Shown here piece by piece: positions 13,946 through 57,695 of a stretch of DNA of 64,000 nucleotides. The DNA comes from Trichaptum fuscoviolaceum (lineage: Eukaryota; Basidiomycota; Agaricomycetes; Hymenochaetales; Trichaptaceae). Location of the stretch: positions 3,040,707-3,104,706 of the forward strand of contig CAJSYZ010000008.1 of the NCBI GenBank assembly GCA_910574455.1, given 5' to 3'. The number at the start of each line of letters is the position of its first letter. The stretch's first letter is position 1. Below the pieces are notes generated by a model. The model worked only from the letters and a program-made list of their open reading frames with translations, did not search any database and was not told the origin of the DNA. The position numbers and the translations under genes are program-made.

Positions 13946-15201
13946 TTAAGGAGGGTTAGTTACACAACAACTATTCTGACATGTCACCCCATTGAAACCC
14001 CACAGGTCGGCGAAAAAGGGAAAGATCGGTTGATCGTAAACAAGAGATATAGCCCGACGCTTCACGGCCTGCTGCCTGAGTGTTGCATTGGCCAATTTTT
14101 TTTGAGCCCAAGCACGATTTCGTACTGCTTGTATTCTTTGTCCAAACAGCGCTGCAAGATTCCAGCATATTTCCGAAAGCTCTGGGTGCTTCACGTGCGG
14201 AAGTATGTCTTCCGCATCGAATAAAAAGGTATTCTTCTCCATCACTACAACCTTCCATGCTCCCACTCTCCAACCTCTGAGTATATCCTCATTCTTGCTT
14301 TTTTCAGCCCCCGAAGCATACGGATAATTTCCTTTCGACATTTTATATCCAACGCCATGCCACACAATCGCATAGTAAAGAGACTCCAGATCGTGGCAGA
14401 GGTCATGAATATATGGAGAAAGTTTCACGTCGAGGGCCTCGATAGCCATAAAGGGCATATTTCCAGATCGCTGGTAGTTGTCGTTATTGTCCTCGCTTGT
14501 GTTCGCTGCTTTACATAGTGAAGTAGGTGCACTAGGTTCATCAGATACATCTGAGGGCTTCAGAGTAGAAACAGGTAAGTCTCCTTTAACAGATGCAGAA
14601 ACGCGTGAACGATCAGCTCCCTCGAAATAGGATGAATCGAATTCAATCAGAGCACCAACTCTCCTTTCACCTTTCACGTAATATGCCATATTAACAATGC
14701 AAATTCGATGAAGGAGCTCCCCATCTGCTGTGCTACTCGTCAGTTTATGTTTTAAGAGCAATAATGTAACGCACAGGCAGTAAACCGGGATTCGACTTCG
14801 TGAAGCTCTTTATTCAGCTGAATGTAGATCGTGGGTCGTGACATGTTCAGAAGTCGTTGCAATATTCTCGTATGTGGGATGACCTCTGTCGGTGATAAAT
14901 GACTAATCGAAGACGACGAGTCCGTAGGTGCATCTGTAATGAAGGCTCTTGCATCCGTTGATCTATGATTATGGCCATCACGATCTGTATCCTCCTCTTT
15001 CAGAGACTGCTTTTGGGCATCGTTGCTCGACTGTGCCTTTTCGAACAGCGCGCACGACATATGTAAGGTTTTCTTCTGTGATACGGGCGTTACACATGAG
15101 CTTTCAAGAGCCAAGTCGTTACGTGTGCTCCTAGTAGATAGAGGGCCCTTGCATTTATTTCCCATTTGTTGTTGATGTGCGTCTGGAGTGGTTCCAGCCA
15201 T
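13946..15201 (-). CDS. truncated FunK1-like pseudokinase, cassette copy 1, type A (HRI)
   Basis: Exons 14775-15201 and 13946-14724, 401 residues. It starts with MAGTTPDAHQQQMGNKCK, which aligns with the middle of full FunK1 proteins (NMVLDAHQQQFGNR), so the family N-terminus is absent. The ATP lobe is replaced by a short Ser/Thr-rich stretch ending in LNKELHEVESRFTA. After the intron the catalytic loop reads YGELLHRICIVN: the HRD aspartate is Ile. The DFG-equivalent is IEFD. The remaining C-lobe is well kept (NMPFMAIEALD, DLESLYYAIVWHGVGYK, VTCQNSCCVTNPP). It is divergent from the type B gene starting at 15667. An alternative upstream frame (15090-15368) does not match the family. The intron acceptor is a CAGCAG doublet. 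Confidence 0.75.
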
Positions 15202-15666
15202 TCTTCTAGGATATGTTTGAATATCAGGCGTATCCGAGTCCGGTTGGTCGCTTGAAGTCCGTGATCACCAAGCTGAGTGATGTTAGCGATGGAGGAAGTT
15301 TTCCAAGAGTTATTTGACACAATTGGAAGAAAGAAAATAGTCAGACGAAAGTCAGCGGGGGAAGGCAAGGTGCATGTCCCGAACTTGAATCTGATTCATG
15401 GCCTGTCGGTGGTGAAAGAAAATCACTCGCGGAACTGGCAAGTATGTCACACTGGCAGTGTTACAGACCATGTGATCTGCACGTGCTAGTTTGTCACAGT
15501 AATACTGCGTGTGACAGCGACGCGTGCACTTGACAACTGACAACCATGCCCGAAACCACTGGCACACATATTTCTTCTCTTCTCTTCTACCTCCATCACT
15601 CAAGCTGTTTAGCCGCTATACCTCTTCAAAACCTGCTACCACTCTATATTGTAACGCACGACGATC
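15202..15666. promoter_or_regulatory. bidirectional intergenic region of FunK1 cassette copy 1
   Basis: 465 bp between divergent start codons. A conserved core near 15445-15515 contains GTCACACTGGCAGTGTTACA, then CATGTGAT, CACGTG and TTTGTCACAG. The same order recurs at 19130-19200 and, in reverse orientation and less complete, at 56110-56195. A pyrimidine-rich leader (TTCTTCTCTTCTCTTC) precedes the type B start. The sequence conservation suggests a shared control region. Confidence 0.55.
15450..15460. promoter_or_regulatory. dyad site CACTG-n-CAGTG
   Basis: Odd-length perfect inverted repeat CACTGGCAGTG in the cassette 1 promoter, flanked by GTCA and TTAC. Identical 11-mers lie at 22290-22300 and 44368-44378, with one variant at 19138-19148. 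It is a plausible dimer-binding site; no factor is known to me. Confidence 0.45.
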
Positions 15667-16797
15667 ATGGCCTCTTCAAACACAAATACGCTTGACGAGC
15701 CCGAAAGCATGCGTAACCTGGAAGATACGGCAGACGTGAACTCTCCAATAGGCTATTGTTCTTCACTCATATCTACACACTGGGTCTTTGATAGCCGCAA
15801 ACGCAGGTCACCGAATACCAGAGCCTCCAATGCAAATACACGTACGGTAGCACCACAGCGTATTTCGAAGGCCCCAATGGCAGTGGATCTGATGCGAAAG
15901 TTCAATATGACGGAGGAGCTAACTCACAAAGAATCTCATGAAGTCCTACCTCAGCTTACTTCTTGTGAGTCCTATCATTGCTCTTTTGACAATTGGCCTA
16001 TGCGCTGACAATGATCCGAATAGCTATTCGTTCGCTCTACTCCGAAAGAAATCTCCTTCGTCGAGATATTAGCACTGCTATCATGAAAGAAGGAAAGATG
16101 ATTGCTGCGCTGATTGATGTCGATCTTTCTACTATTCCGGATGTAACATCCAACGTGGATGGGACTGAACGACTAGGAACTTCTGGATCCGTCAACGAAA
16201 CCTTTCAACCCGTTGCTGTGTCAAATGTGCATACATCTCTGAATGAAAGTGTAGACGCGAGTGAACAGGACAAAAATGGCAAATGTCAAGAACAAAGTGG
16301 AACCGCTCCCTTTATGGCCATTGAGGCTCTTGAGTTGTTCTTCTCTTCCTATGCTCACGAACTGTGTCATGATCTTGAGTCTCTTTTATATGTTTTAGTG
16401 TGGCATAGTATTGGTTATCGATGGAAAGAAGGGAGATATCCGAGGATTTGGAGCAATGACGAGTATAAAAACGTTGAGCTTCTCAGAGCATGGATTATGG
16501 AAGGTGGTTGTTGAGAAGAAGTTTTCCTTCCTATCGGATGCGTCGCGCATACTCAACTATGTTAATCACGATGAACTTCGTGACAAATGTTATATGCTCA
16601 CAAAAGTGTACAATCAAAGGGCAGGAGCAATGCGAGGCATCAAAGCGGACATAAACATGGCCAAGAGATCGGGAAGGAAGCGTCAGGACATCATTTTCAT
16701 TAATGAACCTATTTTCCCTCACTTTGCAGATATATGGGGTTTCAGAAAGGTAGAATGCCAGAAAAGCTGTTGTGTAGAATCGATATCTAGATTTTAG
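15667..16797 (+). pseudogene. truncated FunK1-like gene, cassette copy 1, type B, frameshifted
   Basis: Exon 1 is 15667-15964 and exon 2 starts at 16024. The N-terminus MASSNTNTLDEPESMRNLED resembles the start of the full copy at 4482 (MASDHPNTFDDHD). Most of the N-terminal region and the ATP lobe are gone, leaving a jump to KAPMAVDLMRKFNMTEEL. The catalytic loop is RRDISTAIM (His replaced by Arg) and the DFG-equivalent is LIDVD. Compared with the sister copy, 8 nt are missing just after AGAGCATGGA (about 16495), so the frame ends at WIMEGGC; the rest of the C-lobe (SDASRILNYVNH to CQKSCCVESISRF) continues in another frame to 16797. Probably non-functional as a full product. Confidence 0.75.
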
Positions 16798-16902
16798 CAC
16801 TTCCTACCTATGTAATATTCATAGTTTTTGCCAATGATCTACTATACATCATCAAATTACTATCGTGTATGTCAGTAACAGAAGCAATCACTCTGTCATC
16901 AG

Positions 16903-17431
16903 TAAGGTGTGACATGGGTACAGGTAAACCCGGGTTACCCGTGCATCCGACCCGCAGGTCTGTCACGGGTCTGGGTGTTCTGGGTCTGGGTGCACCTGCA
17001 GCACCAAACCCGGGTCGGGTCTGGGTCAGGGGTTTGCCAAAGTGGGTCAGACCCGGGTTACCCATATCAAGGTAAAACCTTACATAGTATGCTATTTTTG
17101 TCTGTAATTCTTCAGCAAGTCCTCTTCTTAATTAAAAAACACTCACAACTGTAGTTTGCTACGGTTTTTGGACATGAGATAAATGACATTAGGGGCAGTG
17201 GATAATGGTAAAATGAGAAAACAAAAAATTAATTGCCTTATCGGGCAAGTATTGTGTGGGAACAAAGCTTTATTGATGACCCGGGTCGGACCCGTAACTA
17301 GCCCGACCCACACCCATACCCGACCCGCACCCATGAAGCCAGACCCGGGTCGGGTTCGGGTCACCCTACTTTTTCTCCTAACCCGGTGGACGGATACGGG
17401 TTGGGTCGGGTCAGACCCATGTCACACCTTA
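16903..17431. mobile_element. non-autonomous hAT-like DNA transposon, 529 bp
   Basis: 17-bp perfect terminal inverted repeats TAAGGTGTGACATGGGT (16903-16919 and 17415-17431) are flanked by an 8-bp direct repeat GTCATCAG (16895-16902 and 17432-17439). An 8-bp target duplication is the hAT hallmark. The subterminal regions are packed with GGGTC/GACCC and ACCCGGGT words in both directions; the centre is A/T rich. There is no transposase, so mobilisation would need a hAT enzyme elsewhere. The paralogous flank at 26195-26260 has the same neighbourhood without the insert, an empty site. Confidence 0.85.
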
Positions 17432-17675
17432 GTCATCAGGCGAGAAGCGGATCTGAATACTGTGAGTCTAGCAATTATTAGATTTAATTGGAATGATGAT
17501 ACAGCCTCAAAGCATTCGAAAGGTTAAGTCGCTGTGCACACCCTTTAGTGATACTTTTAAGTTGGTAAATACCGCACTGTATGTAGTTTGGCGAACAATT
17601 ACAATCAGTGCTTGCCCGCGGCAAATGTACATGTATTATAGCAAAGAGTAATATTACAGACAAAGCCACTTGGCA

Positions 17676-18943
17676 TCAAGGACGCTTAGGAGTGTTAATT
17701 ACACAACAACTCTTCTGACATGCCACCCGTTCGAAACCCCACATGTCTGCAAAGGTAGGAAAGATTGGCTGATTGTGGACAACAGACATAACCCGAAGCT
17801 TCGCGCCCTGCTGCCCCTGAGCCGCTGACTCGGCGGCAACTTCCATGTTCCAATCCCAATTTCGTACAGCTTCTATCCTTTGTCGGAACAGAAATGCGAG
17901 ATTCCAGCATGTTTGTTTAAGCCATAAATGCTTGACATGCCGAAGTGTGTCTTTCGCGTCGAGTAAAAAGCTGTTCTTCTTTATCACTACTTGTTCCCAA
18001 GTTCCCATTCTCCATCCTCTGAGAATATCATGCTTCTGCCTTGCAGATTCCGTCGATCTATATCCAACACCATGCCATACAGAGGTGTAGAAAATAGACT
18101 CCAAATCATGGCAGATGTCGTGAATATATGGAGAAAGTTTCAAGTCAAGAGCCTCGATAGCCATAAAGGGCATAGTTCCAGATCGATGGCAAATGTCGTT
18201 ATTATCCTCTTCGCCTGTGCTCGCTGCTTTATATAGTGAAGTAGGTGCACTGGAATATGCAGATACACCTGAGACTGTAGACGACTTCAGATTAGCAACA
18301 GGTAATTCTCCTTTAACAGATGTAAGAAAGCCTGAACGCTCAGCTCCCTCGCAAAAGGATAGATCGAATTCAATCAGAGCATCAACTCTCCTTTCTTTCA
18401 CGTGGAATGCCACATTAACAATGCTCATTCGATGAAGGAACTCCCCATCTGCCGTGATGCTCGTCAGTTTTTAATTCAAGAGCAATAATGTAACGCACAG
18501 GCAGTAAATCGGGATGCGACTTCGTGAAGTTCTTTATTCAGGTCAATGAAATTATATCGGACCGTGAATCGTGACATGTTCAAAGGTCGTTGCGATAATA
18601 TCATAGGTGGGATGGCCTCTGTCGGCGATAAATGAGTATATGAAGACGACGCGGCCGAGTAACATGAGTCCGTAGGTGTATCTGAGATGAAGGCCCTCGT
18701 GCCCGCTAATTTATGAGTACGGCTTTCACGGCTTGCATTCTCCTCAAGCTGCTTTTGGGCATCGTTGCTTGACTGTGTCTTTTCGAAAAGCGCGCACGAC
18801 ATATGTAAGGATTTCTTCTGTGATACGGGCGTCAAACGTGAGTTTTCAAGAGTCAAGTCGATACGTGCCCTTCTAGTAGATAGAGGGTCCTTGCATTTAT
18901 TTCCCATTTGTTGTTGATGTGCGTCTGGAGTGGTTCCAGCCAT
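17676..18943 (-). CDS. truncated FunK1-like pseudokinase, cassette copy 2, type A (HRM)
   Basis: Exons 18499-18943 and 17676-18448, 405 residues. Same build as the copy at 13946-15201: start MAGTTPDAHQQQMGNKCK, no N-terminal domain, no ATP lobe, LNKELHEVASRFTA at the exon end. After the 50-nt intron the loop is YGEFLHRMSIVNVA, so the catalytic Asp is Met, and the DFG-equivalent is IEFD. The C-lobe is kept (TMPFMAIEALD, DLESIFYTSVWHGVGYR, VACQKSCCVINTPKRP). It is divergent from the type B gene at 19352 with 408 bp between the starts. The 3' flank is homologous to the flanks at 26195-26430. Confidence 0.75.
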
Positions 18944-19351
18944 ATCTTCTAGGATATGTTTGAATATCAGGCGTATCTGGTCGGTCGCTTGAAGTCCGTG
19001 ATCACCGAGCTGCGAATTGTTAGCGATGGAGGAAGTTTTTCAAGAAAGTCAGCGAGCGAAGGCAAAGTGCATGATGTCCGAGTCGCGTACTGATTCATGG
19101 GAAAGAAAAGCAACCACTCGCGGAAGCAAACATGTCACACTAGCAGTGTTACATACCATGTGAATTGCACGTGATAGTGTGTCACAGCATCACAGTGACA
19201 CAGGCAGTGCGACGCACTTATCCACTGACAACCATACCCATAACCACGCATATTTCTTTTCTTCTCCTCTACCTCCATCACCTCAAGTTGCCTTCCTAGG
19301 CAGTCACTCTACTCCTAAAAAACTTACTATCGTTCCTACAACACGGCGATC
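18944..19351. promoter_or_regulatory. bidirectional intergenic region of FunK1 cassette copy 2
   Basis: 408 bp between divergent starts. It repeats the copy 1 core: CATGTCACACTAGCAGTG (19131-19148), ATACCATGTGA, CACGTG and GTGTGTCACAG, followed by a second GTGACA cluster and a pyrimidine-rich leader (CTTCTCCTCTACCTCC). Confidence 0.55.
19138..19148. promoter_or_regulatory. dyad site variant CACTAGCAGTG
   Basis: Same position in cassette 2 as the dyad at 15450-15460 in cassette 1; only the central base differs, so the inverted arms are unchanged. Confidence 0.4.
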
Positions 19352-20829
19352 ATGGCCTCCTCAAATACAAATACGTTTGACGAGTCCGAAAGCATGCGTA
19401 TCCTGGAAGATACGACGGACGTGGGCTTTGTCATAGCTTACCGCTCTTCACTCCAATATTTGCATCGGATCTTTAATCTCCATCTCAGGTGCGACTTACA
19501 CCAGTACCAATTTAGCGACATAGCTCTCGAGCAGTACTTAGGATGTTCGTCAAGGATAACTGACTCGGACACCGAAAAACGAAAGATGCGCATACAGGAA
19601 ATCACAGCCCGCAAAGCGGAGGACAAAAATTCAAAATCGGATGAGCTTGCAAATGTCACTGGAAAACTGGATGTTATGATAAAGAACGGAGATACCAAGA
19701 TCAACTTGAAATCCTTACGATGGGGCCGGGACCATACGTCAAGCGTGCCGCAGTTCAAGAGGCCAGGCTTGAGCAGTTCTGTCCATGCCCACAGGAACTT
19801 ACGGGAAGAGGATGACGTAGTTTTTCAGAGTCACAAACGCAGATCAGCAAATACACGTACGGTAGCACCACAGCGATCTTCGAGGGTGTCAGAGGCAATG
19901 GTTCTGCCAGTGATGCGAAAGTATAACCTCACCGAGGTGCTAATTCAGCTTACTGCCTGTGCGTCTTATCATTGCTCTTTTAACAATTGGCCTATGCGCT
20001 CACAATTATCTGAACAGCAATTCATTCGCTCTACTCCGAAAGAAATCTCCTTCATCGAGGCATGAGCACCGCTGGCACGAAGGAAGGAAGAACAAGTACT
20101 GCACTTATCGATTTCGATCTCACTACCGTGCCGGTTGTGATGTCCAATGCGGACGGGGCTGAACAACGCTCAGGCACTTCTAGATCTCTCTATGGATCCT
20201 TTTCACCTGTTGCTGTTTTGGATCAGCACATGGTGTCAGATGAACGCAGTGCACCTACACCTCTGAACAAAAGTGTGAACGCGAGTGAACAGGGCAACAA
20301 TGGCAAATGTGAAGAACAAAGTGGAACCGCACCCTTTATGGCCATCGAGGCTCTTGAGTTGTTCTTCTCTTCATGTGCTCACGAACTGTGTCATGATCTT
20401 GAGTCTCTTTTATATGTTTTAGTGTGGCATGGTATCGGCTATCGATGGAAAGCAGGGAAATATCGGAGGATTTGGAGCAACGACGAGTATAAAAACGTTG
20501 ATCTTCTCAGAGCATGGAGAGTAGGATCATGGAAGGTGGTTGTTGAGGAGAAGGTTGACTTCCTATTGGATGCGTCGCGCATACTCAACTATGTTAATCA
20601 CGACGAACTTCGTGACAAATGTTTTGAGCTCACAGTATTGTACAATCGGAGGGCAGTAGCCATGCAAGGCATCAAAGCGAACATAAACATGGCCAAGAGA
20701 TCGGGAAGGAAGCGTCAGGACATCATCTTCGCCAACGAGCCTGTTTTCCCGCACTTTGCAGATATATGGGGCTTCAGAAAGGTAGAATGCCAGAAAAGCT
20801 GTTGTGTAGAATCGATATCTAGATTTTAG
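19352..20829 (+). CDS. FunK1-like pseudokinase, cassette copy 2, type B (HRG), N-lobe lost
   Basis: Exons 19352-19958 and 20018-20829, 472 residues. It is the longest type B copy: the N-terminus MASSNTNTFDESESMRILED is followed by a recognisable FunK1 N-terminal domain (YLHRIFNLHLRCDLHQYQ, then KINLKSLRWGRDH), then a basic stretch and a jump to the exon end MRKYNLTEVLIQLTA. The ATP lobe is absent. The loop reads SERNLLHRGMSTAGTKEG, the HRD Asp being Gly; the DFG-equivalent DFD is kept (LIDFDLT). The C-lobe is complete (APFMAIEALE, DLESLLYVLVWHGIGYRW, VECQKSCCVESISRF). A reading frame opening at 20062 is just exon 2 and not a separate gene. Kinase activity is not expected. Confidence 0.75.
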
Positions 20830-26429: not shown

Positions 26430-27775
26430 TTATAGACAAAGACACTTGGCATCAAGGACGTTATGATGTTTAATTACACAACAATTCTTCTGACATGCGA
26501 AAAAGTCGAAACCCCATACATCTGCGAAGGCAGGAAAGGTCACCTGCCAATCGTGAACAACAGGCATAACCCGAAGCTTCGCGCCCTGCTGTCCGAGTAC
26601 TGCTGACTCGGCTGCAAGTTTTCTAATCCAGGCCCTATCTCGTACGGCTCGCATCCTTCGTCGGAATAGAAATGCAAGATTCCAGCATATTTGTTTAAGC
26701 ACAAAATGTTTCACATGGTCGAGTACCATGGCTGGTTTCGTCAGAAAGACATCTTTTCTATCGGCTACTTCACTCCAAGATCCCACTCTCCATTCTCTGA
26801 GGATATCATGTTTCTTTCGCGTTGCAGATTCCGAAAGGTACGGACAAATCCCCCTCTTCCATCGATATCCAAGTCCATGCCACACAGATGCATAGAGAAG
26901 GGACTCCAGATCGTGGCACATGTGGTGTTCATACGGAGAAAGTGTCATTTCGAGTGTCTCGATGGCCATGAAGGGTATACTTCCAGACCGATGACGATTA
27001 TTATTACCTTGTTCCCCTGCATTCTCATCTTCATATAGAGATGTAGGAGTACTAGGTGCATTCGACAACATAGGCGTATTCGGTATCGCAGCGGGTGAAG
27101 AAGATTCATCGACAGAACCAAAAGCATCTGGACATTCGAATCCGGATGGATTTGAGATCTTGGACGGATCGAATTCAAGCAACATTGCGATTACTCTGCC
27201 GTCCTTGATGTGGTTTGCCATATTAGCAATGAAAATATCTTGATGAAGGTGCTCTTTATGTGAGAACAGGGCATGAACATCTATTCGGATACTCGTCAGA
27301 CCATCGGAGTTCGATTTAAAATGTGAAGACACAACGCACGTGTAGTAAACTGATGCACGAATTCACGGAACTGTTCGTCAGTCAGTTCCTCGAGAGGATC
27401 GTATTTTCGCGTCAATACCATCTCCATGAGATGCCCGTACGACTTAGCTTCCGGACTTCCTGCGGCTTTCAGGAAGTCAGCCGATTTGATTTTGTAGCCT
27501 CCCGTTTTGTAAGTGGCGAGATTCCGTACGCGATTCTTCAATGCATCATCCATGTCAGAGTCAGTTACGCCGAACGAACATCTCAGAAACGTTTGAAAAG
27601 GGATGTCGCTGTAAGTATTACGCCGTAAGTAAGACCCGAGATGAAGGTCAACGCTCCGATGCGTGTAGGGGTGTGAGGGATAGCAAGCCTTCAAATGGTT
27701 GACAGACGCCTCAGCTGTATCTTCAAGTTCCAGGACATGTTGAATATCAAGCTCATCCCTCCGGCCGGAGTCCAT
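26430..27775 (-). CDS. FunK1-type pseudokinase, N-lobe deleted (HQD)
   Basis: Exons 27340-27775 and 26430-27280, 428 residues. The N-terminus is intact (MDSGRRDELDIQHVLELED, PYTHRSVDLHLGSYLRR, FGVTDSDMDDALKNRV), then AGSPEAKSYG jumps to MVLTRKYDPLEELTDEQF, so the ATP lobe and linker are missing. The loop reads YSHKEHLHQDIFIAN in the family alignment: HRD became HQD. The DFG-equivalent is LLEFD. The C-lobe retains IPFMAIETLE, DLESLLYASVWHGLGYRW and FACQKNCCVIKH. Its closest relative here is the copy at 12003-13448 (same MDS.RRDE.DIQHVLE start, similar 5' flank), but it lost a different segment and kept the intron. It is probably an expressed or recently silenced pseudokinase. Confidence 0.75.
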
Positions 27776-28844
27776 GGTCTGCGCGATATAAGGTATAAGC
27801 TATGAAACAATGCAGACTGATTGTTTTGATAAGTGAAGAATAGTTGAACAATGTTAAGAAAGCAGGTGAGTCAGGACTCATGGAGGTTAAAGTGGGAATT
27901 GTGGTTACACGCGAGTCGAGCTAAGAAGTCTGAGTCACGATGGATTCCGAGAAACTGGGTCATAATTGGGACGCGACGATCATTTTTTGTAAGAGGCTTT
28001 ACATATGATTGGATTTGTGTTCAAGGTCTATCTACTACACATACAAAACGACAGGAAGAGAAAAGAAACATTTAAGGAGGTTTATTTGAGGTATGATTTA
28101 CTATGGAGAAGGTTCGAGTGTCGAGTCATTCTCCGGGCTATACAATACGATACGGATAAAGTGACAAGAGCGCAGACATACTGTTACACACATATATACA
28201 CGGCCGATCTTCTCTTCATCGCATCCTCTCGTAGACAAACGAGAAGATCGAGAAAAACAGAGCGGAAGAAGAGGAAGAACGGCCAATATCAATATGCTCG
28301 TGAGGGGATGCAATCTTGGTGATGTCCCAATCTCAAGGAAGATCAAGAAAGACAGGAAATCAAGGGTCATTTGGGAGAACAGGAGATGAATGCCAGTGAG
28401 AAATCTTGGAATAAAGAACGTGAGGAGGTCGTGTTCATGACGATGACAATGCCGATGCAAAATAAGCGTTAAAGTGAAAGGCGGGTGATAATATGTATGT
28501 GCGTTTATCGTGATCAGGTTCGTATGTGTGTGCGGCCATCCGCACCCACATGAGTATGCCATCGTGAAGTGGGATGTTTGTATGTACCGTCAAGATGCGA
28601 ACAGCGTATTTTACAGTCGAATGTAATTCGACAATGCCAGATGAGTGATTGATGACCATGCGGTGCTGAGTCGTGGGGGTGGTGATTGCGAGTGCTTATA
28701 CTGATGCTGAGAGAGACAAAGTGAAGTCGAGATGCTGAAATGATGGATGGACGGAAAAAACGCCAAGGGAGTACTACAGTTAGAAGCGTGCTTGGACCAA
28801 AAGATGAAATCCAGAGTGGCCATGGTTCAATCCTCCATGGTCAT
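27776..28844. other. intergenic, no gene seen
   Basis: 5' flank of the FunK1 copy, homologous to 13449-13560 at its start, then 3' flank of the CRIB gene. At 27973-27992 a 20-base word closely resembles the Tc1 inverted repeat end. Frames here are short and without family resemblance. Confidence 0.4.
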
Positions 28845-43904: not shown

Positions 43905-44546
43905 GATTGCAGTGAGTAGACTCTGTTTTGTAGTCTGAAGACTTGTACGATGGTGGTTCACGATAAAAGTCGCTTGAGAAGTTGACACACTTCGGAACGG
44001 GCGGAATAGCCAAAAAGTTCGCGTTTAGGTCAGATTAGTCACCTAGATATCACGTGCGCTCAACACGACATAAACACGTCGAAATTAGACGAAACCTTGC
44101 TTTTCACCTTGAATCCGCTCAGGCTTCGTGCCTTCAAAGACACCCAGAAGGTAGTGCTCCAGAGCAATTCAGGGAGTAGCTTGGCGAGCTAAGCTGAATT
44201 TAATGCGCCTGATAAGTACCAATATACCCCAGGTATGGAAGTCTTGCAGAATATGTATATTTATTTCCCTAGCTACTGCCACGGTGTATGTGTTAGACTC
44301 AGTTACTAGAGATTCTTTGTTTTGTTTTGTGAGGAAAGTATATGCGCGACGCTTCACGTGACGTGCCACTGGCAGTGTGGCTCGTGAGAAACTTGAAGGC
44401 ACGCGCGTAGTATGTAGTAAAGGCGCGACTGATTCTACCTTGCCTATGAACCACAACCTCCGTATCTTGTCTTCTCACCAACCATCTCTCAATCAGCGAT
44501 CTCCTCCAAGTCGAGTTAACATCAGAAAAACCTTCTTTCATTGCTC
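43905..44546. promoter_or_regulatory. divergent intergenic region of eIF4B and FunK1 kinase
   Basis: 642 bp between start codons. The FunK1-proximal part has CACGTGACGTG, the dyad CACTGGCAGTG (44368-44378) and ACTTGAAGGCACGCGCG, the same order (CACGTG, CACTGGCA, ACTTGAA) as the promoter of the F-box gene at 62419. The eIF4B side has CACGTG near 44052. Confidence 0.5.
44368..44378. promoter_or_regulatory. dyad site CACTG-n-CAGTG
   Basis: CACTGGCAGTG about 170 bp before the start of the full-length FunK1 gene at 44547, just after CACGTGACGTGC. Confidence 0.45.
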
Positions 44547-47479
44547 ATGGCGCTCAATTCAGCGACCATGACCTCCACTCATACGAGTTCGATTCATAGC
44601 TGGTACACGATCAACGAGCTCGAACTCCAAAGCATCGTGAAAGAAACCGAAATGGAGGGTCCTTCTGAAGTCATTGATGTAGGGGACATCAATAGCACTC
44701 CTACCAGACCTCGCATCACTTCGCACCTATATACGCATCAGAGCGTTGACCCTTCATTACGGGAAGAGTTAAAGCGATCCCGGTTCAGTGGCATCTCTTT
44801 TGAGGAGTTCTTGAAATGCTCGTTTGGACTGTCGGATAAGGATATGGAAACTCTGAAGGAAAGCGTGAGGGAAAAGTCGGTTCACGAGTTGAAGCAATAT
44901 AAATCCAAAGCGACCGAGTTCGCGATGCACGCCGAAAATCTGGAAGCTAAAATGTACAAGCCGTTCGCGGAGATGGGAAACATGGTACTGAACGCACATC
45001 AAAAAGGGTCTACAAAACGAATCAAAGTGCTTCCTTCCACTGGCAACGAATTCGTGAAAGGTGACCGTTTTGGTAGACGAAAACCTGATGTGTCATTGGT
45101 GCCAGAGAAGGATGGGGATGAAAGCATCGACATGGAATCTTTACGGTGGTATCACATGTTGTGCGTGCTGGAGTTCAAGAAAGGACAATCAAATCGAAAA
45201 CATCCTCGAGAAGAGGACCCCTCAGACCGTGAATCCCGCAAGCGCGGCTCGACAACCTCGGCGCTAGCGCATGAATCCGGAGCTGACCCATTACCTGAAG
45301 CATCCGGAACCGCAACAAGGACCTCAGCGGGTGCACGGGCTTCTGGACCAGTCACTTCCCGGGGGCGCGGAACCAGGACTAAGACCTCAACGGGTGCGAG
45401 CGCAGTTACTTCCCGCGGACGCGGAACCAGGTCAAAGACCTCAACGGGCGCGAGGGCGTCTGGCGCAGTTACTTCCTCGGGGCGCGGAGCTAGGACAAAG
45501 ACTTCATCGGGTGCGAGGGCGTCTGGCGCAGGCCCATCCATGTCTTCAAGAGAAACGTTGACCCGGCCTAGTCCTACGGCTCCATCAGAAGATCTACCTA
45601 TCCTGCGAAGGTCGCAGCGACTCGTAAAAAAATCTCCTCAATCAACCACCGTACCGGACACAATGGGTCCCCCAGTGCCGGTAGCGCAGGGTCCTCCCTC
45701 GACCGAGCCTAAGGATGAAACAGCGATCCCGCCGGCGACGAGCAGTCCATGTAACGACGACAGCCTACAGGCCGGGGAAAATCCGACGGTCCAAGCGTCT
45801 CAGCGCGTCTTACCTACCGCCCAGAGACCTCCTGGTTCGGAAATTGTAGACGATACAGAGGTACAACTGGCAAACTACGCTACAGAGATGTTGAGCATTC
45901 TTTCAGATCGTACATTTGCATTCGGTGCAATTGTCAAGAAAACGAAAATGCAGCTCACTTACTATTCGCGCTCCACTTATGTCATTTCGAACGACATCGA
46001 CATCGTCAAAGACCCTGTCATGTTTGCTGTTTTCTTGTGCTTATTCTTGAGCCAGCCCCTGGACAAGCTCGGTTTCAACAAGGATATGGGCCATCGCAAC
46101 CCTTTCAATCGCGAAAACGAGATGACAAGAACGCTCAACTTTGAATTAGACCCGATCGACGGAGGCGATAATTTCAAGTTAAATCCTGGCATGAAACTTG
46201 AGTTGGAAGATTGCATTCACACCGAGTACTGTCTCATGGGTCGAGCAACGACAGTCTTCAACGTCAAGAGGCCGGAGGGATGTCAAGTCGATCTTGTCTT
46301 GAAAGTTCAATACCATCCGAAGAGTAGGAGGCGCGAAGACCATGCGATAATAATAGCACGAGAGGTCGACCCGGAACATTCGCCTGAGATTTATGGAGTA
46401 GCTATAATGGCAGAGAAGTCTCCTTCAGAGAACCTCAAGAGTGCTTGCGATACGCCCCCGAAGAATAAACTAGAGACGCGAGAAATACGTGTGCTATTGA
46501 TGCGGAAATACAGACCAATTGAGGAGTTGAATGATGATGAGTTCCATGAAGTCATCCCTCAATTTGGCACTTGTACGTTCCGACGTTGCTCTTGATATAG
46601 ATTACCAATGAACTGACCACTATCTCAACAGATGTTCATGCACTCTACTCCGAGAGGGGTCTCCTTCATCGGGATATTAGCATCGCCAATATGGCATTTT
46701 ACATTAAGGAGGGAAAGATTATCGGTACGCTGATTGATTTCGATTTGGCCACCTTTCCGGAACAGACACCTCGTCTGGGTGGAGCTATACCACAACCTTC
46801 GGCCAACAGTCCGGCTGTTCCTGAAGCCGTCAACGAAACTACCTCTTCGGCTGCCATTCTGGACACACCTATAGTTTCAGACGTACCCAATGCACCCGGC
46901 GCAATTGCCCCCCTGCCTACCGCAGCCATCGCAGTTGGGAACGGCAACAATGGCAAAGGTCAAGAACGATCTGGCACTACACCCTTCATGGCTATCGAGA
47001 GTCTCGACATAGAACTTCCCGGGTATGTACACCATCTGCGCCACGAATTGGAGTCTCTCCTTTACGCATCTGTATGGCATGGCGTCGGTTATCGGTGGAA
47101 AAAGGGGAAACTTCCGATGGTATGGGATGTCGATAAAAACAAACTCATCGATCTTCTCAGACCATGGAGAGTAGGATCCTGGACAGTTGTTGTTAAGGAG
47201 AAGGTTGACTTCCTATTGGATGCGTCGGGCATACTCAAATATGTTAAGCACGAAGAACTTCGTGACAAATGTTTTAGGCTCACAAGAGTGTACTGCCGAA
47301 GGGCAGGAGCATTAAAAGGCATCAAAGCGGAGTTAAACATGGCCAAGGTATCGGGAAAGAAGTGCCAGGACATCATTTTCGTCAACGAGCCTATTTTCCC
47401 TCACTTTGCAGATATATGGGGCTTGAGAAGGGTTGAATGCCAGAAGAGTTGTTGTGTAGAATCAACATCTAGATTTTAG
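44547..47479 (+). CDS. FunK1-type fungal protein kinase, full length, motifs intact, with tandem repeat
   Basis: Exons 44547-46572 and 46632-47479, 957 residues. First ATG is 44547 (MALNSATM). N-terminal domain: SHLYTHQSVDPSLREELKR, FGLSDKDMETLKESV, KPFAEMGNMVLNAHQ. A tandem repeat (about residues 250-330) separates it from the ATP lobe, with FAFGAIVKKTKMQLTYYSRS, MGRATTVFNVKRPE, LVLKVQYHPKSRRRED (VAIK-like Lys) and HSPEIYGVAIMAEKS. Exon 2: YVHALYSERGLLHRDISIAN (H688, D690), LIDFDLATF (D711), TPFMAIESL, ELESLLYASVWHGVGYRW, VECQKSCCVESTSRF. All catalytic residues are present. Its C-terminal VES.SRF tail matches type B genes of the cassettes, suggesting these descend from a gene like this one. 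Substrate unknown. Confidence 0.88.
45300..45540 (+). repeat. in-frame tandem repeat (RGRGTRTKTSTGARASGAVTS units)
   Basis: Four imperfect units of 17-21 residues built on T-S-R-G-R-G-T-R-T-K-T-S-T-G-A-R-A-S-G. Bases repeat as CGCGGAACCAGGACTAAGAC and variants. The segment is basic, and its RGRG cores resemble RGG or AT-hook elements. It is absent from the other full-length copy at 4482. Confidence 0.85.
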
Positions 47480-49623: not shown

Positions 49624-52600
49624 ATATTGAACAATTATCCCAACACGGCTTTAGAATTCGTTCCCTTAACTGCCACCGTAGATACGAAGTATTGATTTCT
49701 CTCCTTAATAATTCTGACCCCAAGTCTCTCGACATCCTATGTATACAAGAACCCCCCCCCTCTTTTGCTCGATTCCCCTCTCTCTCGCCCCGTCAGTGGG
49801 ACAGACTCTTACCTTTCCCTTCTAACGACGAAACTCCGCCAAAATGTTTTATTTATATCAGTAAACGCATCCCCTCCTCCTCATTCACACAAATCCAAAT
49901 TCCCCATTCCAATATCACGGCACTCCGCATTCGCATTTCTCATCTTTTTATTTCTCTATTTAATGTATACAACCCCCCTAATTCTTCTCAAACAATTGAT
50001 GCCTTGCATACACACCTTCAAGACCCGAGGACAGGCCCAAGTGCAGCAGATGCGATCATGCTAGTTGGGGACTTCAATAAACACGACCCCCTGTGGTCGG
50101 GTCCCCTTCATCCCCATCGTACCAAGAGGGACCCAGCAGACACCTTGATCGACATCATCCTGAGACACGGACTGGGGCTGTGCCTAGAGCCCGGCACCCC
50201 AACGTACCTGTCTCCAGCACATCGGACGTGGTCAACACTGGACTTGCTCTTTGTTTCTGAAGATAGTCTCCTCCCCGTATTGTCGTACTGTCATACATTT
50301 GGAGGAGATGCATCAGACCATATGGGGCTGGAAGCCGAGTTCAGCATATACCCTGACCAGGTAGACGCAAAGCCGAAACCGAGGTTCCGGGAGGCAGACT
50401 GGGCCGCGTTCGCCAAAGCTGTCAATAACTACTTTCAGGCGAACCCACTACCGGCCATAGGACCCTCCCCGGCCTCGCTGGACAACTATGTGACTCTCCT
50501 CACGAAAGGGCTGCAACACCTCCTAGCCTCGGCAGTCCCAACCACTACAGTATCCCAGTATCGCAACCGCTGGTGGACTGCCGAGCTTACAGCCCTTCGC
50601 AAGGAGTACCGCAAGGTTCAACGACGCATAAACAAGTCCGATAGATCGCATGCGTCATGGGAAGAATGAAAGAGGCGCGTAACAAGTACACTGGGGCTAT
50701 CACGAAGCAGAAACGGGCACACTGGAAACAATATATGGAACAGCTGACGCAAGAACAACTGTGGACGGCGGCGCGGTACACTGACGATACCCCTAGTGCG
50801 TCAACCCGCGTCCCCGCCCTCACCAGCCCCAATGGCATGGTTTCCAGCACAGACGGAAAGTGCGCCGTTCTCTTCGACACCTTCTTCCCTTCCCTGCCCA
50901 ACAGCTACCGACCCCCAGCGCCTTTGGCCCAGCCTGAACGGACCATCCCCCTGGCCCCTTTTGACCAGAGGGACATCGATAAAGCCATATCGAGATTGGC
51001 CCCGTTCAAGGCCCCAGGGCCATCGGGCATACCCAATATTGCTATCAAGTCAGCCCAGGCATTCCTAGGACCGGCCTTGCTTAGCATATTGCGGGCATCC
51101 CTGGAATTAGGCCACTTCCCGACACCATGGAAGTCGTACAGCACAGTCACCCTTCGCAAACCGGGAAAAAGCGATTACACGGTACCCAAAGCATATCGAC
51201 CTGTCGCGTTGGAAGACACCTTGGGTAAGGTGCTCGAATCTGTCATTGCGACACGGCTGTCGGCCATTGCGGAGGCGCACCAGATGCTGCCGGCCACTCA
51301 GTTCGGGGGCCGACCGGGGCGCACCACCACGGACGCCATCCTATTCATCACCCAGAAAGTGAAAGACGCATGGCGCACGGGCAGGGTGGCCAGTCTCCTA
51401 CTCATGGATATTTCGCAAGCCTTCCCGACCGTGCCTCACCCATCCCTATTAGCCAAACTCAAACGAGCGGGAGTGCCACCACCCCTTACAGCGTGGATTA
51501 CAAGCTTCCTCTCCGACCGCACCACCACCCTGTCCTTCGACGACTTCACTTCCTCCCCTCAACCAGTCCCCATTGGCGTCCCACAAGGCTCACCCCTCTC
51601 CCCCATACTGTACCTCCTCTTTAATTCCGACCTCTTGCAGCTCCCCGCAAAACCCACCGACCCATCCTCGGGCTTCATTGATGATACGGCCAAGCTAGTT
51701 GTCTCAAACTCTGCCGCAACCAATGTGCTCACACTCAATGCGTATCTCCAAGACGCGGACCGCTGGGGGGATACGAACGGATCTCGGTACGATTATCAGA
51801 AGTTCCAGCTGATTCACTTTTGGGGGCACAAGGCCAAGCCAGCAACAGCAACAACAGCAGCACTCGACCTTCAATTCCGCTCGCATGTTATCCGACCATC
51901 GGCGCACGCAAGGTACCTGGGGGTCATACTGGATGAGAAGCTGTCCTTCAAATTTCACATTGAACAGGTCCTTGCTCGGGGCACCCGGACACTGGGAGCG
52001 GTGGGAAGGCTAAAGGTACCCCATGGCTATATGCGCCAACTTATACAGGCCATGGTCCTCCCTCGGGTTGAATACGCCCTGGTAACGTGGTACGAGCCCC
52101 TCTCGGAGGGCCCAGGACGACGGACAGGGAACGCAGGGCTCACTAAGGCAATGTCCAAATTGCAGAGGAGGGCCGCCAAACTCATTACCGGGGCCTTCAG
52201 TACCACAGCCACGGACATGGCGGACTTTCATGCGCACCTTCTACCCACCCACATTCGCCTCAAGCTCAGTGTTTTCAAGGCCGCAGTGCGACTGTGCACG
52301 CTACCTCCACAACACCCACTACACGCCATGGTGCAGCGATGCCGGCGACCGGTGAAGAGACACCGCTCTGTCCTTCATAAGCTAATGAGTGCCTTCCCGG
52401 AGCTACGGGGGTCTGTAGAGTCCATAAGGCCCCTACTCGGTACGGATTCAGCGTTCCCGGGTCTAACAACCCGTGTAGCGACATCCCGCGCGGCAGCCAA
52501 GGATGAAGCAGAAGCAGCAATCGCAGCAGGGTCACTCTGCATCTTCTCAGATGGGTCGGGTTACAAGGGAGGTGTAGGGGCCGCAGCCATAGCCTTCGGG

Positions 52601-53744
52601 GGGAAACCAAGGGCTTCGTACGAGGACTACGTCGGGAAGTTAGGCACAGGAACTGGGGCAAAGGACAGGCGGATGGAGGTCAAGGACGGGGTCACCGGGA
52701 GACCGGGGACACAGACGCAGGAAGGCGTATTTCTCTCTTCTTTTTCTTCTTCTTTTCCTTCTCTCAACGAGGCTCACTCTCACTGTAGCTCTAGCAAAGT
52801 CTCTTCTCTCTCTTTTCCTTCTTCTCTTTCCTCCTCTTCTTCTCTTTCTCTGCCGCTTTCACCCACAGGTCATATCTGGTCCCCGGACGTGCGCCGCCTC
52901 CACCTTGGGACGGCTCGGGAACACACGGTCTTTGAAGCTGAAGTGAGTGGTGCGATTCTCGGGCTCGACCTCATCAGGGCCACCCCCCGTGCCACCCGGG
53001 CATCGATATTCATCGACTGCCAGGCCGCCATAAGCGCCATCCGGGCTCCCCGAGCACAACCGGGCCAACATCTCCTCACCATATTCTGGACGGAACTTCA
53101 GCGACTTCAGCAGCAACGAACCACTCTAGCCATTACCATCCACTGGGTCCCAGGCCACGAGGACATGGAAGCCAATGAGCAGGTCGACGGGGAGGCCAAA
53201 ATGGCAGCACAGAACACCGGGGCCAACCAAACCGGCCGACTCCGATATTTTGCCAACAGCCTACCAGCTAGCGCGGCCGCGCTCATAGCGGCTAGGAAAA
53301 ATCAGGCCTCCCTCGAGTGGAAACAAGAGTGGACCAAGTCCAAGAGCGCGAAGAAATTGCGGGGCCGTCGACTCGAGTGCCCCCTCGCGGGCGGTACGCA
53401 CTATCTACAAAGACCGAAGCCGGAACGAGTGCGCCATCCTCACACAGTTACGCACGGGGCACGCACCACTGAACGCTCACCTCTTCCGCATCCGCTGCTC
53501 TGACTCTCCGCTCTGTTCCAACTGCAAGGTCGCCGAAACGGCCTCTCACTACCTCTTCAACTGCCGGAAATATGCTAGCCAACGCCGTGCACTCCGAACG
53601 TCACTCCGCAACAAACCCCTCACTTTACGTTCTGCACTGGGCCCGGGAGCAAGGGTCGGACCCATACTACGCTTCATCAAAGACTCGGGTCGATTCCCCC
53701 ACCTGTTCCCGACCACTGAGGTGGAAGACGATACCTTGGGTTGA
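49620..53744 (+). pseudogene. LINE ORF2: endonuclease, reverse transcriptase, RNase H; frameshifted
   Basis: The first frame (49620-50669) is the endonuclease: LDILCIQEPP, LVGDFNKHDPLW, TWSTLDLLFVS, GGDASDHMGL. A shift at about 50660 leads to the second frame (to 53503): RT with KAPGPSGIPN, KAYRPVALEDTLGKVLE, GGRPGRTTTDAI, LLMDISQAFPTV (catalytic Asp), PQGSPLSPILYLLF and the active-site box GFIDDTAKLVV. RNase H has IFSDGSGYKGGVGAAAI, FEAEVSGAILGLDL, FIDCQAAISAI and IHWVPGHEDMEANEQVD. After another shift near 53400 the frame gives CSDSPLCSNCKVAETASHYL, a CCHC-like finger, and stops at 53742-53744. A pyrimidine-rich stretch codes a Ser/Phe-rich insert inside RNase H. Confidence 0.85.
52733..52870 (+). 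repeat. pyrimidine-rich tract inside LINE RNase H
   Basis: About 130 bases almost free of purines apart from a short centre, coding LSSFSSSFPSLNEA and SSLSFPSSLSSSSSLS in frame. It separates the first RNase H Asp (FSDGSG) from the Glu block (EAEVSG), where the family normally has a short link. Confidence 0.7.
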
Positions 53745-54838: not shown

Positions 54839-55977
54839 CTAAAATCTAGATATTGATTCTACACAACAACTCTTCTGGCATTCTACCTTTCTGAAGCCCC
54901 ATATATCTGTGAAGTAAGAGAAAATAGGCTCGTTAACGAAGATCATGTCCTGAGGCATCCTTCCCGATCTCTTGGCCATATTTATGTCCGCTTTGATGCC
55001 TCGCATAGCTCCTGCCCTTTGATTGTACACTTTTGTGAGCATATAACATTTGTCACGAAGTTCTTCGTGATTAACATAGATGAGTATGCGAGACGCATCC
55101 GATAGGAAGTAGAACTTCTTCTCAGCAATAGCTGTCCAAGATCCTACTCTCCATGCTCTGAGAAGATCAACGTTTTTATACTCGTCGTTGCTCCAAATCC
55201 TCGGATATCTCCCTTCTTTCCATCGATAACCAATACCATGCCACACTAAAACATATAAAAGAGACTCAAGATCATGACACAGTTCGTGAGCATTGGAAAA
55301 GAAGAACAACTCAAGAGCCTCAATGGCCATAAAGGGTGCGGTTCCACACTGTTCTTGACATTTGCCATTTTTGTCCTGTTCACTCGCGTTTACACTTTCA
55401 TTCAGAGATGTGTGCACATTTGACATAGCAACGGGTTGAAAGGTTTCGTTGACGGATCCAGAAGTTCCTGGTCGTTCAGTCCCATCCACATTGGATGTTA
55501 CATCCGGGATAGTAGAAAGATCGAAATCAATCAGCGCAGTAATCGTCTTTCCTTCTTTCATGGCAGCAGTGCTAATATCTCGACGAAGGAGATTTCTTTC
55601 GGAGTAGAGCGAATGTGTAGCTGTCCGGTTTATTGTCAGCGCATACGTCAATTGTTAAACGAGCAATGATAAGACGCACAGGAAGTAAGCTGAGGTACGA
55701 CTTCATGAAATTCTTTGTGAGTTAGCTCCTCCGTCATATTGAAATTTCGCATCAGAACCATTGCCATCGGGGCCTTCGAAAGTCGCTGTGGTGCTACCGT
55801 ACGTGTATTTGCATTGGAGGCTCTGGTATTCGGTGACCTGCGTTTGCGGCTATCAAAGACCCGGTGTGTAGATATGAGTGAAGAACAATAGCCTATTGGA
55901 GAGTTCACGTCTGCCGTATATTCCAGGTTACGCATGCTTTCGGGCTCGTCAAGCGTATTTGTGTTTGAAAAGGCCAT
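54839..55977 (-). CDS. truncated FunK1-like kinase relative, cassette copy 3, type B (RRD)
   Basis: Exons 55680-55977 and 54839-55620, 359 residues, open throughout. It is nearly the same as the type B copy at 15667 but without its 8-nt deletion: MAFSNTNTLDEPESMRNLEY, short basic link SRKRRSPNTRASNANTRTV, MRNFNMTEELTHKEFHEV, then YSERNLLRRDISTAAMKEG. HRD became RRD; the DFG-equivalent LIDFD is intact. C-lobe: APFMAIEALE, DLESLLYVLVWHGIGYRW, VECQKSCCVESISRF. No ATP lobe, so catalysis is not expected. It is divergent from the type A gene at 56434; the whole pair is inverted relative to cassettes 1 and 2. Confidence 0.75.
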
Positions 55978-56433
55978 GATCGTCGTGCGTTACAATATAG
56001 AGTGGTAGCAGGTTTTGAAGAGGTATAGCGGCTAAACAGCTTGAGTGATGGAGGTAGAAGAGAAGAGAAGAAATATCTGTGGTTTCGGGCATGGTTGTCA
56101 GTTGTCAAGTGCACGCGTCGCTGTCACGGTATTACTCAGGCTGTGACAAGCCAGCACGTGCAAATCGCATGATCTGTAACACCGTGACATGTTTGCCAGT
56201 TTTCTTTCACCACCATGAAACAGATTCAAGTTCGCGACATGCACTTTGCCTTCGCCCGCTGACTTTCGTCTGACTATTGTCGTTCTTCCAAGTGTGTCAA
56301 ATTACTCTTGGAAAATTTCCTCCTTCGCTATCATCACGCAGTTCGGTGATCACGGACTTCGACCGACGGGATACGCCTGATATTCAAACATATCCTGGAA
56401 GCTGGCACCACTCCCGACGCATATCAACAACAA
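55978..56433. promoter_or_regulatory. bidirectional intergenic region of FunK1 cassette copy 3
   Basis: 456 bp between starts. Read on the minus strand it repeats the other cassettes: CATGTCACGGTGTTACAGAT, GCACGTGCTGG, TTGTCACAG and CGTGACAGCGACGCGTGCAC. The dyad CACTG-n-CAGTG has been lost by a small deletion (CATGTCACGGTGTTAC). Confidence 0.55.
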
Positions 56434-57695
56434 ATGGGAAATAAATGCAAGGACCTGTTATCTACTAGAAGCACACTTAACGAAAACTCACTTGTGATGC
56501 CCGTATCGCAGAAGAAATCCTTACGATGGGACCATATGTCGTGCGCGCTGTTCGGAAAGGCACAGTTAAACAACAATATCCACAAACAGCTTCTGGAAGA
56601 GGACGATGCAGGTCGTGAGAGCTGTTATCATAAATTATCGGACGCAAGAGCCTTTCTTACAGATACACCTACGGACATTTGTTACTTGACCGCGTCGTCT
56701 TCGACAAGTCATTTATCACCGACAGAGGTCATCCCACCTACGAGAATATTGCAAAGGCTTCTGAACATGTCACGACCCACGGCTCAATACAACTACATTG
56801 AACTGAATAAAGAACTTCACGAAGTTGCATCCCGATTTACTGCCTGTGAGTTATATTATTGCTCATAAAACAGAAAGAACTGACTATTATCACAGCAGAC
56901 GGTGTGTTACTTTATCGAATGAACATTGCTAATTTAGCATACTACGTGAAAGAGGAAAAGAGAGTTTATGCACTGATTGAATTCGATCTATCCTTTGTCG
57001 AGGGAACTGAGCCTTCAGGCGTTTATGCATCTGTCAAAGGAGACATACCTGTTTCTATTCTGAAGCCTCCTCTGGTCTCAGATGTATCTGCAGATTCCAG
57101 TGCGCCTACTTCACTATATAAAGCAGTGAGCACAGGCGAAGAGGATAATAACGCCAATGACCATCAATCTGGAACTATGCCCTTCATGGCTATCGAGACA
57201 CTCGACATAAGACTTTCTCCATATGTACACCACGTGTGCCACGATCTGGAATCCCTTCTGTATGCATCTGTATGGCATGGCGTTGGTTATCGATGGACGA
57301 AGGCGATTTGTCCGTATGCTTTGGAATCTGCAAGGAAGAAGAAACATGATATCCTCAGAGGATGGAGGGTGGGATCTTGGGCTGAGGCAGCCGACAGGAA
57401 GGAGCTCTTCCTGATCAAACGAGACGAAATACTCGACTGCATGAACCACCCAGAGCTTTCCGATATATGCTGGAATCTTGCAGCGCTATTTCTACAAAGG
57501 ATGGAAGCTGTGCGGGCCCGCATCAAAATCAGAAAGGTCGCAGCCAACTCGGCGACAGGACTCAGACATGAGGCCGGGACGCGTCGGTTTTTATCTTTTG
57601 CTCACATGCAGCCGACCTTTCCCACCTTCGCAGATATATGGGGGCTCGAATGGGTGGAATGTCAGAAGAGTTGTTGTGTAGCTAATCCCATGTAA
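56434..57695 (+). CDS. truncated FunK1-like pseudokinase, cassette copy 3, type A (YRM)
   Basis: Exons 56434-56845 and 56899-57695, 402 residues. The first 11 codons of its sisters are present upstream (AGTTPDAYQQQ), but their ATG is missing, so the start moves to MGNKCKDLLSTRS. LRWDHMSCALFGKAQ is kept, then the ATP lobe is absent and LNKELHEVASRFTA precedes the intron. The loop reads YGVLLYRMNIAN: both His and Asp of HRD are replaced. The DFG-equivalent is IEFD. C-lobe: TMPFMAIETLD, DLESLLYASVWHGVGYRW, VECQKSCCVANPM. It is a pseudokinase by sequence. The 3' flank shares the CACACCCTTGAG word with the other type A flanks. Confidence 0.75.

What the first reader, a model, noticed from the sequence alone, without database searches (positions are those of the whole stretch)
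13946..57695. Divergent two-gene cassette of truncated FunK1-like genes, present three times
A type A gene (start MAGTTPDAHQQQMGNK, loop HRI/HRM/YRM, DFD changed to EFD) stands head to head with a type B gene (start MASSNTNT.DE.ESMR, loop RRD/HRG, C-terminus VESISRF) at 13946-16797, 17676-20829 and, inverted, 54839-57695. Each pair shares a 408-465 bp intergenic region with the same ordered motifs. The unit was copied as a pair. Both partners lost the ATP lobe but kept the C-lobe, one intron at the same phase and the cysteine tail. Paired, co-regulated pseudokinases would be an undescribed arrangement; alternatively this is segmental duplication of dying genes.
Basis: partly seen in the sequence, partly recalled or inferred. 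Interest (0 to 1): 0.85.

Follow-up and report, generated by a model that had tools for sequence, protein, structure and literature searches.

The report
Twin shortened fungal kinase genes, triplicated
A fungus carries three copies of a back-to-back pair of shortened, probably inactive kinase genes whose reading frames are mostly intact; the pair looks like a by-product of a fast-shuffling kinase gene cluster, although selection on the shortened proteins is not excluded.

Summary
Three head-to-head pairs of FunK1-type (PF17667) genes without the ATP lobe lie in the window. They share homologous intergenic regions of 465, 408 and 420 bp and were found nowhere else in the 59-Mb assembly. Corrections: B1 is broken by an 8-bp frame change, A3 lacks the first ATG, and two of three B genes end in VESISRF in frame.

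The pair was copied as a unit, but its copies are mosaics (289 runs of site classes against 394 expected, 0 of 5000 shuffles as low), and the 3' flank of A2 matches that of its neighbour FK4. The lost ATP lobe is not special to the pair: 8 of 11 genes of this cluster lack it, with four different junctions.

The genes are not simply dying. The A frames have no stop where neutral drift predicts several (0 of 4000 simulations), and the A coding gaps are multiples of three (26 of 26). Amino-acid constraint is nevertheless weak (omega 0.56-0.99), apart from a 42-codon C-lobe core in most pairs.

Most likely this is a birth-and-death FunK1 cluster in which one divergent pair of ATP-lobe-less paralogues was triplicated. 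Paired function and co-regulation remain untested.

The parts
13946..15201 (-). A1: exon 1 15201-14775, intron 47 nt, exon 2 14727-13946; 402 aa, intact; loop HRIC, EFD
   Evidence: exon 2 97% identical to public protein P0001
15202..15666 (.). intergenic region of unit 1 (465 bp) between the A1 and B1 start codons
   Evidence: found at 3 places genome-wide
15667..16797 (+). B1: exon 1 15667-15964, intron 59 nt, exon 2 16024-16797; 8-bp deletion near 16492, stops after 262 aa; broken copy
17676..18943 (-). A2: exon 1 18943-18499, intron 50 nt (acceptor shifted 3 bp), exon 2 18448-17676; intact; 3' flank resembles that of FK4
   Evidence: exon 2 99% identical to P0004
18944..19351 (.). intergenic region of unit 2 (408 bp)
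19352..20829 (+). B2: exon 1 19352-19958, intron 59 nt, exon 2 20018-20829; 472 aa, intact; longest B
54839..55977 (-). B3: exon 1 55977-55680, intron 59 nt, exon 2 55620-54839; 359 aa, intact; 3' flank resembles that of FK5
55978..56397 (.). intergenic region of unit 3 (420 bp)
56398..57695 (+). A3: exon 1 56398-56845, intron 50 nt, exon 2 56896-57695; open, but no ATG at the A1/A2 start (next Met is residue 13)
   Evidence: exon 2 99% identical to P0003
12003..13499 (-). FK3: another FunK1 gene without ATP lobe; N-part FK1/FK2-like, C-part FK5-like; open frame through what looks like a remnant of the intron
26430..27799 (-). FK4: another FunK1 gene without ATP lobe, nearest window relative of A
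4302..6890 (+). FK2: full-length FunK1 (comparator)
44520..47479 (+). FK5: full-length FunK1, nearest full-length relative of the B C-lobe

Best explanation
This is a birth-and-death FunK1 kinase cluster (11 genes on contig C8) with strong reshuffling between paralogues. Two different FunK1 paralogues, each with the ATP lobe deleted in frame, came to lie head to head once. A comes from the FK4-like side of the tree; B has an N-part that leans to FK1/FK2 joined to an FK5-like C-lobe. The pair with its intergenic region was then copied as a unit to three places, one inverted. Since then the copies have become mosaics by gene conversion or ectopic exchange with each other and, for A2 at least, with the neighbour FK4. 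Shown: the pairs, the absence of the lobe, the mosaicism, the open frames, and one broken copy. Inferred: the order of events; that the proteins are made; and that what is selected is a catalytically dead C-lobe plus Cys tail that binds the partners or substrates of full-length FunK1 kinases (decoy or scaffold), in which case the linkage of the two genes would be incidental.
For: A, B and their intergenic DNA were found at three places genome-wide (all candidates scored). 8 of 11 C8 genes lack the lobe, with different junctions. In the C-lobe tree A sits with FK4 (support 89/90, moderate) and B with FK5 (98/97). N- and C-parts of FK3 and B2 match different paralogues, e.g. FK3 N-part 66% to FK1 and C-part 52% to FK5. 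Informative sites cluster along the unit: 289 runs against 393.6 +/- 11.4, 0 of 5000 shuffles as low. Local dS differs 3.6- to 8.9-fold along A, and the 3' flank of A2 matches that of FK4 (z 25.6). Frames: 0 of 4000 neutral simulations keep three A genes stop-free, and 26 of 26 A coding gaps (three pairwise comparisons, not independent) are multiples of 3, against 11 of 27 intergenic gaps. The core omega is 0.12-0.30 in the three A pairs, p 0.018 or less.
Against: Gene conversion from constrained donors could itself keep frames open and core omega low, so selection on the truncated genes is not cleanly separated from selection on donors. Whole-gene omega is near 1 for A1/A2 (0.99) and B1/B3 (0.87); core constraint is not significant in B2/B3 (p 0.14) or B1/B3 (p 0.77). 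The match of B1 and B3 flanks to FK5 (z 10.2 and 10.5) may be plain descent rather than exchange. The original pairing event is not seen; a shared truncated ancestor of A and B could be neither shown nor excluded. Pairing without any solo member would also fit selection for the pair.
Confidence: 0.66

Rival explanations
1. A and B form a functional, co-regulated pseudokinase pair. A bidirectional promoter makes both proteins together, and they act jointly (heterodimer, or dominant-negative on full-length FunK1), which is why they are always copied together.
For: 3 of 3 pairs kept, no solo A or B among the matches. Frames open beyond neutral expectation in A1-A3, B2 and B3. Public proteins close to all three A exon 2 (97-99%; clusters of 5-7 member sequences) and one further A1-like at 88% (4 members). 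The catalytic defects differ: A lost the loop Asp, B replaced the loop Asn (residue roles recalled).
Against: No expression data. The intergenic region is not clearly more conserved than synonymous sites (78.5% units 1-2, 76.9% units 2-3; the 91.4% of units 1-3 goes with a recent B-side similarity). One B copy is broken and one A copy lost its first ATG. All three pairs descend from one event, so pairing has a sample of one. No close public B exon 2 was found, though poor short-read assembly of near-identical B1/B3 could explain that.
Confidence: 0.17
2. Plain decaying pseudogenes: recent segmental duplicates of dead FunK1 genes with frames open only because they are young.
For: B1 frame change, A3 start loss, degenerate loops, omega 0.99 for A1/A2 and 0.87 for B1/B3.
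Against: Divergence is not small (dS 0.23-0.38 except B1/B3 at 0.05); 4.8-7.8 stops per lineage expected and none seen in the A genes, B2 or B3; 26 of 26 A gaps in frame; splice sites kept, including a 3-bp acceptor shift in A2 that keeps frame.
Confidence: 0.14
3. The A/B unit is a mobile cassette that inserted at three sites.
For: Homology drops sharply near the two outer stop codons in all three copies; one copy is inverted and about 34 kb from unit 2.
Against: No copies outside the cluster. The edges are FunK1 3' ends whose flanks still show weak homology to each other (A1-A3, A2-A3, B1-B2) or match neighbouring FunK1 genes (A2-FK4, B1-FK5, B3-FK5). I did not search systematically for terminal repeats or target-site duplications of the unit.
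Confidence: 0.03

Closest known systems
FunK1 / Pkinase_fungal family (PF17667)
   Same: C-lobe and activation-segment signature (SGTxPFMAIE..LD ... HDLESLLYxSVWHGxGYR), Cys tail and phase-1 intron before the loop as in the full-length neighbours; clustered, lineage-specific expansion as described in PMC3203195 and PMC3591445 (passages read)
   Different: ATP lobe missing, catalytic residues degenerate, genes in head-to-head pairs
Pseudokinases / kinase-domain-loss paralogues such as the Bub1-Mad3/BubR1 series (PMC3591445 passage)
   Same: a duplicated kinase loses catalysis by domain deletion or mutation while the rest is kept
   Different: function of those is known (recalled); here it is not, and half the kinase fold is gone
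Birth-and-death multigene clusters with gene conversion (general knowledge)
   Same: mosaic copies, broken members, local homogenisation
   Different: nothing fundamental; the head-to-head truncated unit is the unusual part

Membership tests
FunK1 (PF17667) homology | profile match over the curated cut-off (24.1 bits) | tested here: met
   exon-2 frames of A1, A2, A3, B1, B2 and B3, all over the cut-off; best stretch only within positions 339-385
FunK1 functional kinase | ATP lobe (profile about 41-194) | tested here: not met
   positive controls FK2 and FK5
FunK1 functional kinase | catalytic loop HRDxxxxN and DFD | tested here: not met
   A lacks the loop Asp and has EFD; B has I/G/A in place of the Asn and lacks four residues after it; B2 has HRG; B1 has DVD (residue roles recalled)
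Pseudokinase | translated, folded kinase-like domain without catalysis | tested here: inconclusive
   frames open beyond neutral expectation, but the AlphaFold2 model of A1 exon 2 had mean pLDDT 39.4; no expression data
Co-regulated divergent gene pair | joint expression from a shared promoter | not testable with these tools
   no RNA data; only the shared 408-465 bp is shown
Co-regulated divergent gene pair | intergenic region conserved beyond neutral | tested here: inconclusive
   78.5% (units 1-2) and 76.9% (units 2-3) identity, against A/B dS of 0.23-0.38 for the same units; roughly neutral by eye, no formal test and no motif test
Mobile cassette | copies at unrelated sites | tested here: not met
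   3 of 3 matches within one 64-kb stretch

The most novel reading that the evidence does not exclude
FunK1 clusters repeatedly make frame-protected 'half-kinases' by cutting out the ATP lobe (four different junctions among 11 genes here, independence not proven; C-lobe-only copies also on contig C10), and the head-to-head A/B unit is a linked pair of such half-kinases kept together because both proteins are needed, for instance as decoys or adaptors for the full-length FunK1 kinases beside them.
Probability: 0.17. Interest if true: 0.68.

Novelty: new variant of a known kind. Interest (0 to 1): 0.38.

Why it matters
FunK1 kinases are heavily expanded in some fungi and their function had not been established as of 2013 (PMC3591445, passage read). 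If the shortened members are real proteins, kinome counts over-state active kinases and the family may work partly through non-catalytic C-lobe proteins. If not, the locus is a clear example of a kinase cluster that creates and discards shortened chimeras. Either way it gives a concrete set of open frames to test.

Tried and rejected
Positive selection on the A C-terminus: a model with one dS for the whole gene gave omega 1.3-1.7. With local dS it fell to 0.56-0.81, so I rejected it as an effect of mosaic divergence. With local dS the A loop-linker region gave omega 2.3 and 2.1 in two pairs (p 0.069 and 0.086), which I do not read as significant.

Common truncation of A and B: linker comparisons were inconclusive (nine A-B comparisons; the best score was reached by 1 of 200 shuffles, the others by 3 to 115; no A or B linker convincingly matched FK1, FK2 or FK5). 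The closeness of the 3' breakpoints of A, B and FK4 at the MRKYN motif was not tested formally.

Widespread C-lobe-only genes on C6, suggested, were rejected: reading the one 10-kb stretch fetched (L034) by eye shows upstream frames that look like an ATP-lobe part. The C12 stretch (L035) was only compared by tblastn.

B exon-1 DNA alignments contain gaps that are not multiples of 3 (B1/B2: 11, 2, 9, 1, 308; B2/B3: 2, 2, 2, 307). The net length difference is 309, a multiple of 3, and the protein-guided alignment is in frame, but this is weaker than for A.

Structure: the AlphaFold2 model of A1 exon 2 was too poor to use; no fold search was run. The codon-model null in IQ-TREE failed inside (shell quoting), so I wrote a pairwise GY94 fit. 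NG86 values were lower (0.45-0.78) and are superseded because they ignore transition bias. The organism could not be named (no paper). Literature searches for shortened FunK1 or FunK1 pseudokinases. None of the titles or abstract starts listed describes them, but the lists were capped (10 of 878, 12 of 36, 12 of 2,222). Passages of PMC3203195, PMC3591445 and PMC2838846 were read; no whole paper.
Full report
WHAT IS THERE. The window is G000:C8:3040707-3104706 of a 59.09-Mb genome in 12 contigs. The FunK1 content and intron style point to a filamentous fungus, probably a mushroom-forming basidiomycete (inference; not named by any search). The three head-to-head pairs are real. Gene models (from DNA alone): A1 15201-14775/14727-13946, A2 18943-18499/18448-17676, A3 56398-56845/56896-57695; B1 15667-15964/16024-16797, B2 19352-19958/20018-20829, B3 55977-55680/55620-54839. 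Introns are 47-50 nt (A) and 59 nt (B), all after the first base of a codon. Five of six frames are open from end to end. B1 carries an 8-bp deletion and stops after 262 residues; A3 has no ATG at the position of the A1/A2 start.

ATP LOBE. In each exon 2 the best PF17667 stretch lies within profile positions 339-385, whereas FK2 and FK5 in the same window also match 41-194. In the alignment with full-length FK1, FK2 and FK5, A keeps a piece of the N-terminal region and linker, B2 keeps a longer piece, and both resume just before the intron that precedes the catalytic loop. A lacks the loop Asp and has EFD; B has I, G or A where the loop Asn stands and lacks the next four residues (residue roles are recalled).

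GENOME-WIDE. A, B and their intergenic DNA were found at these three places only. In this FunK1 subfamily the C-lobe searches find 11 genes on C8, 6 on C3 and 5 on C10 (two weak C7 matches, E 3.2e-4, belong to other FunK1 genes and are left out). The FK2 exon-1 query finds the ATP lobe in 3 of 11, 6 of 6 and 1 of 5 of these (all 19 candidates scored). So 12 of 22 lack the lobe at that sensitivity, 8 of them on C8: A1-A3, B1-B3, FK3 and FK4. Junctions of A, B, FK3 and FK4 differ, and the public protein P0005 shows yet another; that the deletions are independent is likely but not proven. Family counts are lower bounds (107 of 163 candidates scored).

ANCESTRY AND MOSAICS. In the C-lobe tree of 24 rows A groups with FK4 (89/90) and B with FK5, P0006 and P0012 (98/97), FK3 next (98/96). 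The N-parts tell a different story: FK3 is 66% identical to FK1 over 164 residues of its N-part but 52% to FK5 over its C-part. B2 leans the same way, more weakly: N-part 31% to FK1 and FK2 (73 and 83 bits) against 25% to FK5 (46 bits), C-part 52% to FK5 against 41% to FK1. Between the three units, sites where two copies agree against the third are clustered: 289 runs, 393.6 expected, 0 of 5000 permutations as low. Units 1 and 3 agree over intergenic, B exon 1 and B loop (64, 63 and 53 sites against 20, 4 and 6 for units 1-2), while A C-terminus sites favour units 1-2 (65 against 41). The 3' flank of A2 matches that of FK4 (z 25.6). The flanks of B1 and B3 match that of FK5 (z 10.2 and 10.5), which may be descent. 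The intergenic region read as B-upstream weakly resembles the upstream DNA of FK1, FK2, FK3 and FK5 (z 3.9-4.4) but not of FK4 (z 1.8). This fits gene conversion or ectopic exchange within the cluster.

SELECTION. Pairwise GY94 fits: A1/A2 omega 0.99 (p 1.0), A1/A3 0.70 (p 0.026), A2/A3 0.67 (p 0.011), B1/B2 0.56 (p 0.003), B1/B3 0.87 (p 0.73), B2/B3 0.59 (p 0.003). Full-length FK1/FK2 gives 0.40 for the N-part and 0.55 for the C-part. Fitted by region with local dS, the 42-codon core from SGT to GYR has omega 0.30, 0.27 and 0.12 in the three A pairs (p 0.018, 0.007, 1e-5) and 0.125 in B1/B2 (p 0.009), but 0.33 (p 0.14) in B2/B3 and 1.4 (p 0.77) in B1/B3. A exon 1 and the A loop-linker region do not differ significantly from 1. 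Neutral simulation predicts 4.8-7.8 stops per lineage in eight settings (four gene pairs, each from both sequences; 0 to 0.75% of 2000 runs without a stop), and 0 of 4000 runs left all three A genes free of stops. For A exon 1 alone, 5.1 stops are expected in total and 0.6% of 3000 runs have none. A coding gaps are multiples of 3 in 10 of 10, 7 of 7 and 9 of 9 cases; intergenic gaps in 4 of 10, 3 of 7 and 4 of 10. Frame protection is thus clear for A and, from stops, for B2/B3; amino-acid constraint is weak outside the core. Conversion from donors under selection could give part of this pattern.

OTHER SEQUENCES. In a protein collection of 5.77 billion sequences, the A1 query finds P0001 (97% to A1 over exon 2, 6 member sequences), P0002 (88% to A1, 4), P0003 (99% to A3, 7), P0004 (99% to A2, 5) and the more distant P0005. 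The three A loci therefore exist with open exon 2 in other data sets, of unknown strain or species. No close B exon 2 was found; the B2 query excluded proteins shorter than about 260 residues, the B3 query did not. B1 and B3 are 93-96% identical by exon, which may break short-read assemblies, so this absence is weak evidence. P0007 repeats the FK3 junction, and P0008 does by eye.

INTERPRETATION. The head-to-head pair arose once and was copied as a unit within a cluster that makes and reshuffles shortened FunK1 genes. Whether the pair has a function as a pair rests on data not held here. The intergenic region diverges roughly like synonymous sites, which gives no clear support for a specially conserved shared promoter. 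The more general observation, that the ATP lobe has been cut out repeatedly while frame, C-lobe core and Cys tail are kept, is the part I find most worth testing. Literature was seen only as search listings and passages; nothing seen there described shortened FunK1 pairs.

Noticed in passing
window 16895-17439: Element of about 529 bp between units 1 and 2 with short terminal inverted repeats (TAAGGTGTGACATGGGT) and an 8-bp flanking duplication GTCATCAG; 7 matches genome-wide including itself (80-100% identity, six of them over the full 529 bp). Looks like a non-autonomous hAT-type transposon (type recalled).
   Followed up: partly
L033 4275-6914 (C10:1.325-1.328 Mb): Downstream of a full-length FunK1 gene lie three tandem C-lobe-only copies, at least one with an open frame ending in a Cys tail: a second place with shortened FunK1 genes.
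   Followed up: partly
window 12003-13499 and 26430-27799: FK3 and FK4 also lack the ATP lobe; FK3 seems to read through a remnant of the intron and is an FK1/FK2-FK5 chimera.
   Followed up: yes
junctions of A (14775-15201), B (19352-19958) and FK4 (27296-27799): The 3' deletion ends of three lineages fall within a few residues of one motif (MRKYN), either by shared ancestry or by a recurrent breakpoint.
   Followed up: partly
window 50645-53503: Long open frame with a reverse transcriptase domain (RVT_1) between FK5 and unit 3, possibly linked to the rearrangement.
   Followed up: no
window 9301-10608: UbiA prenyltransferase domain (PF01040) in a frame inside the FunK1 cluster.
   Followed up: no
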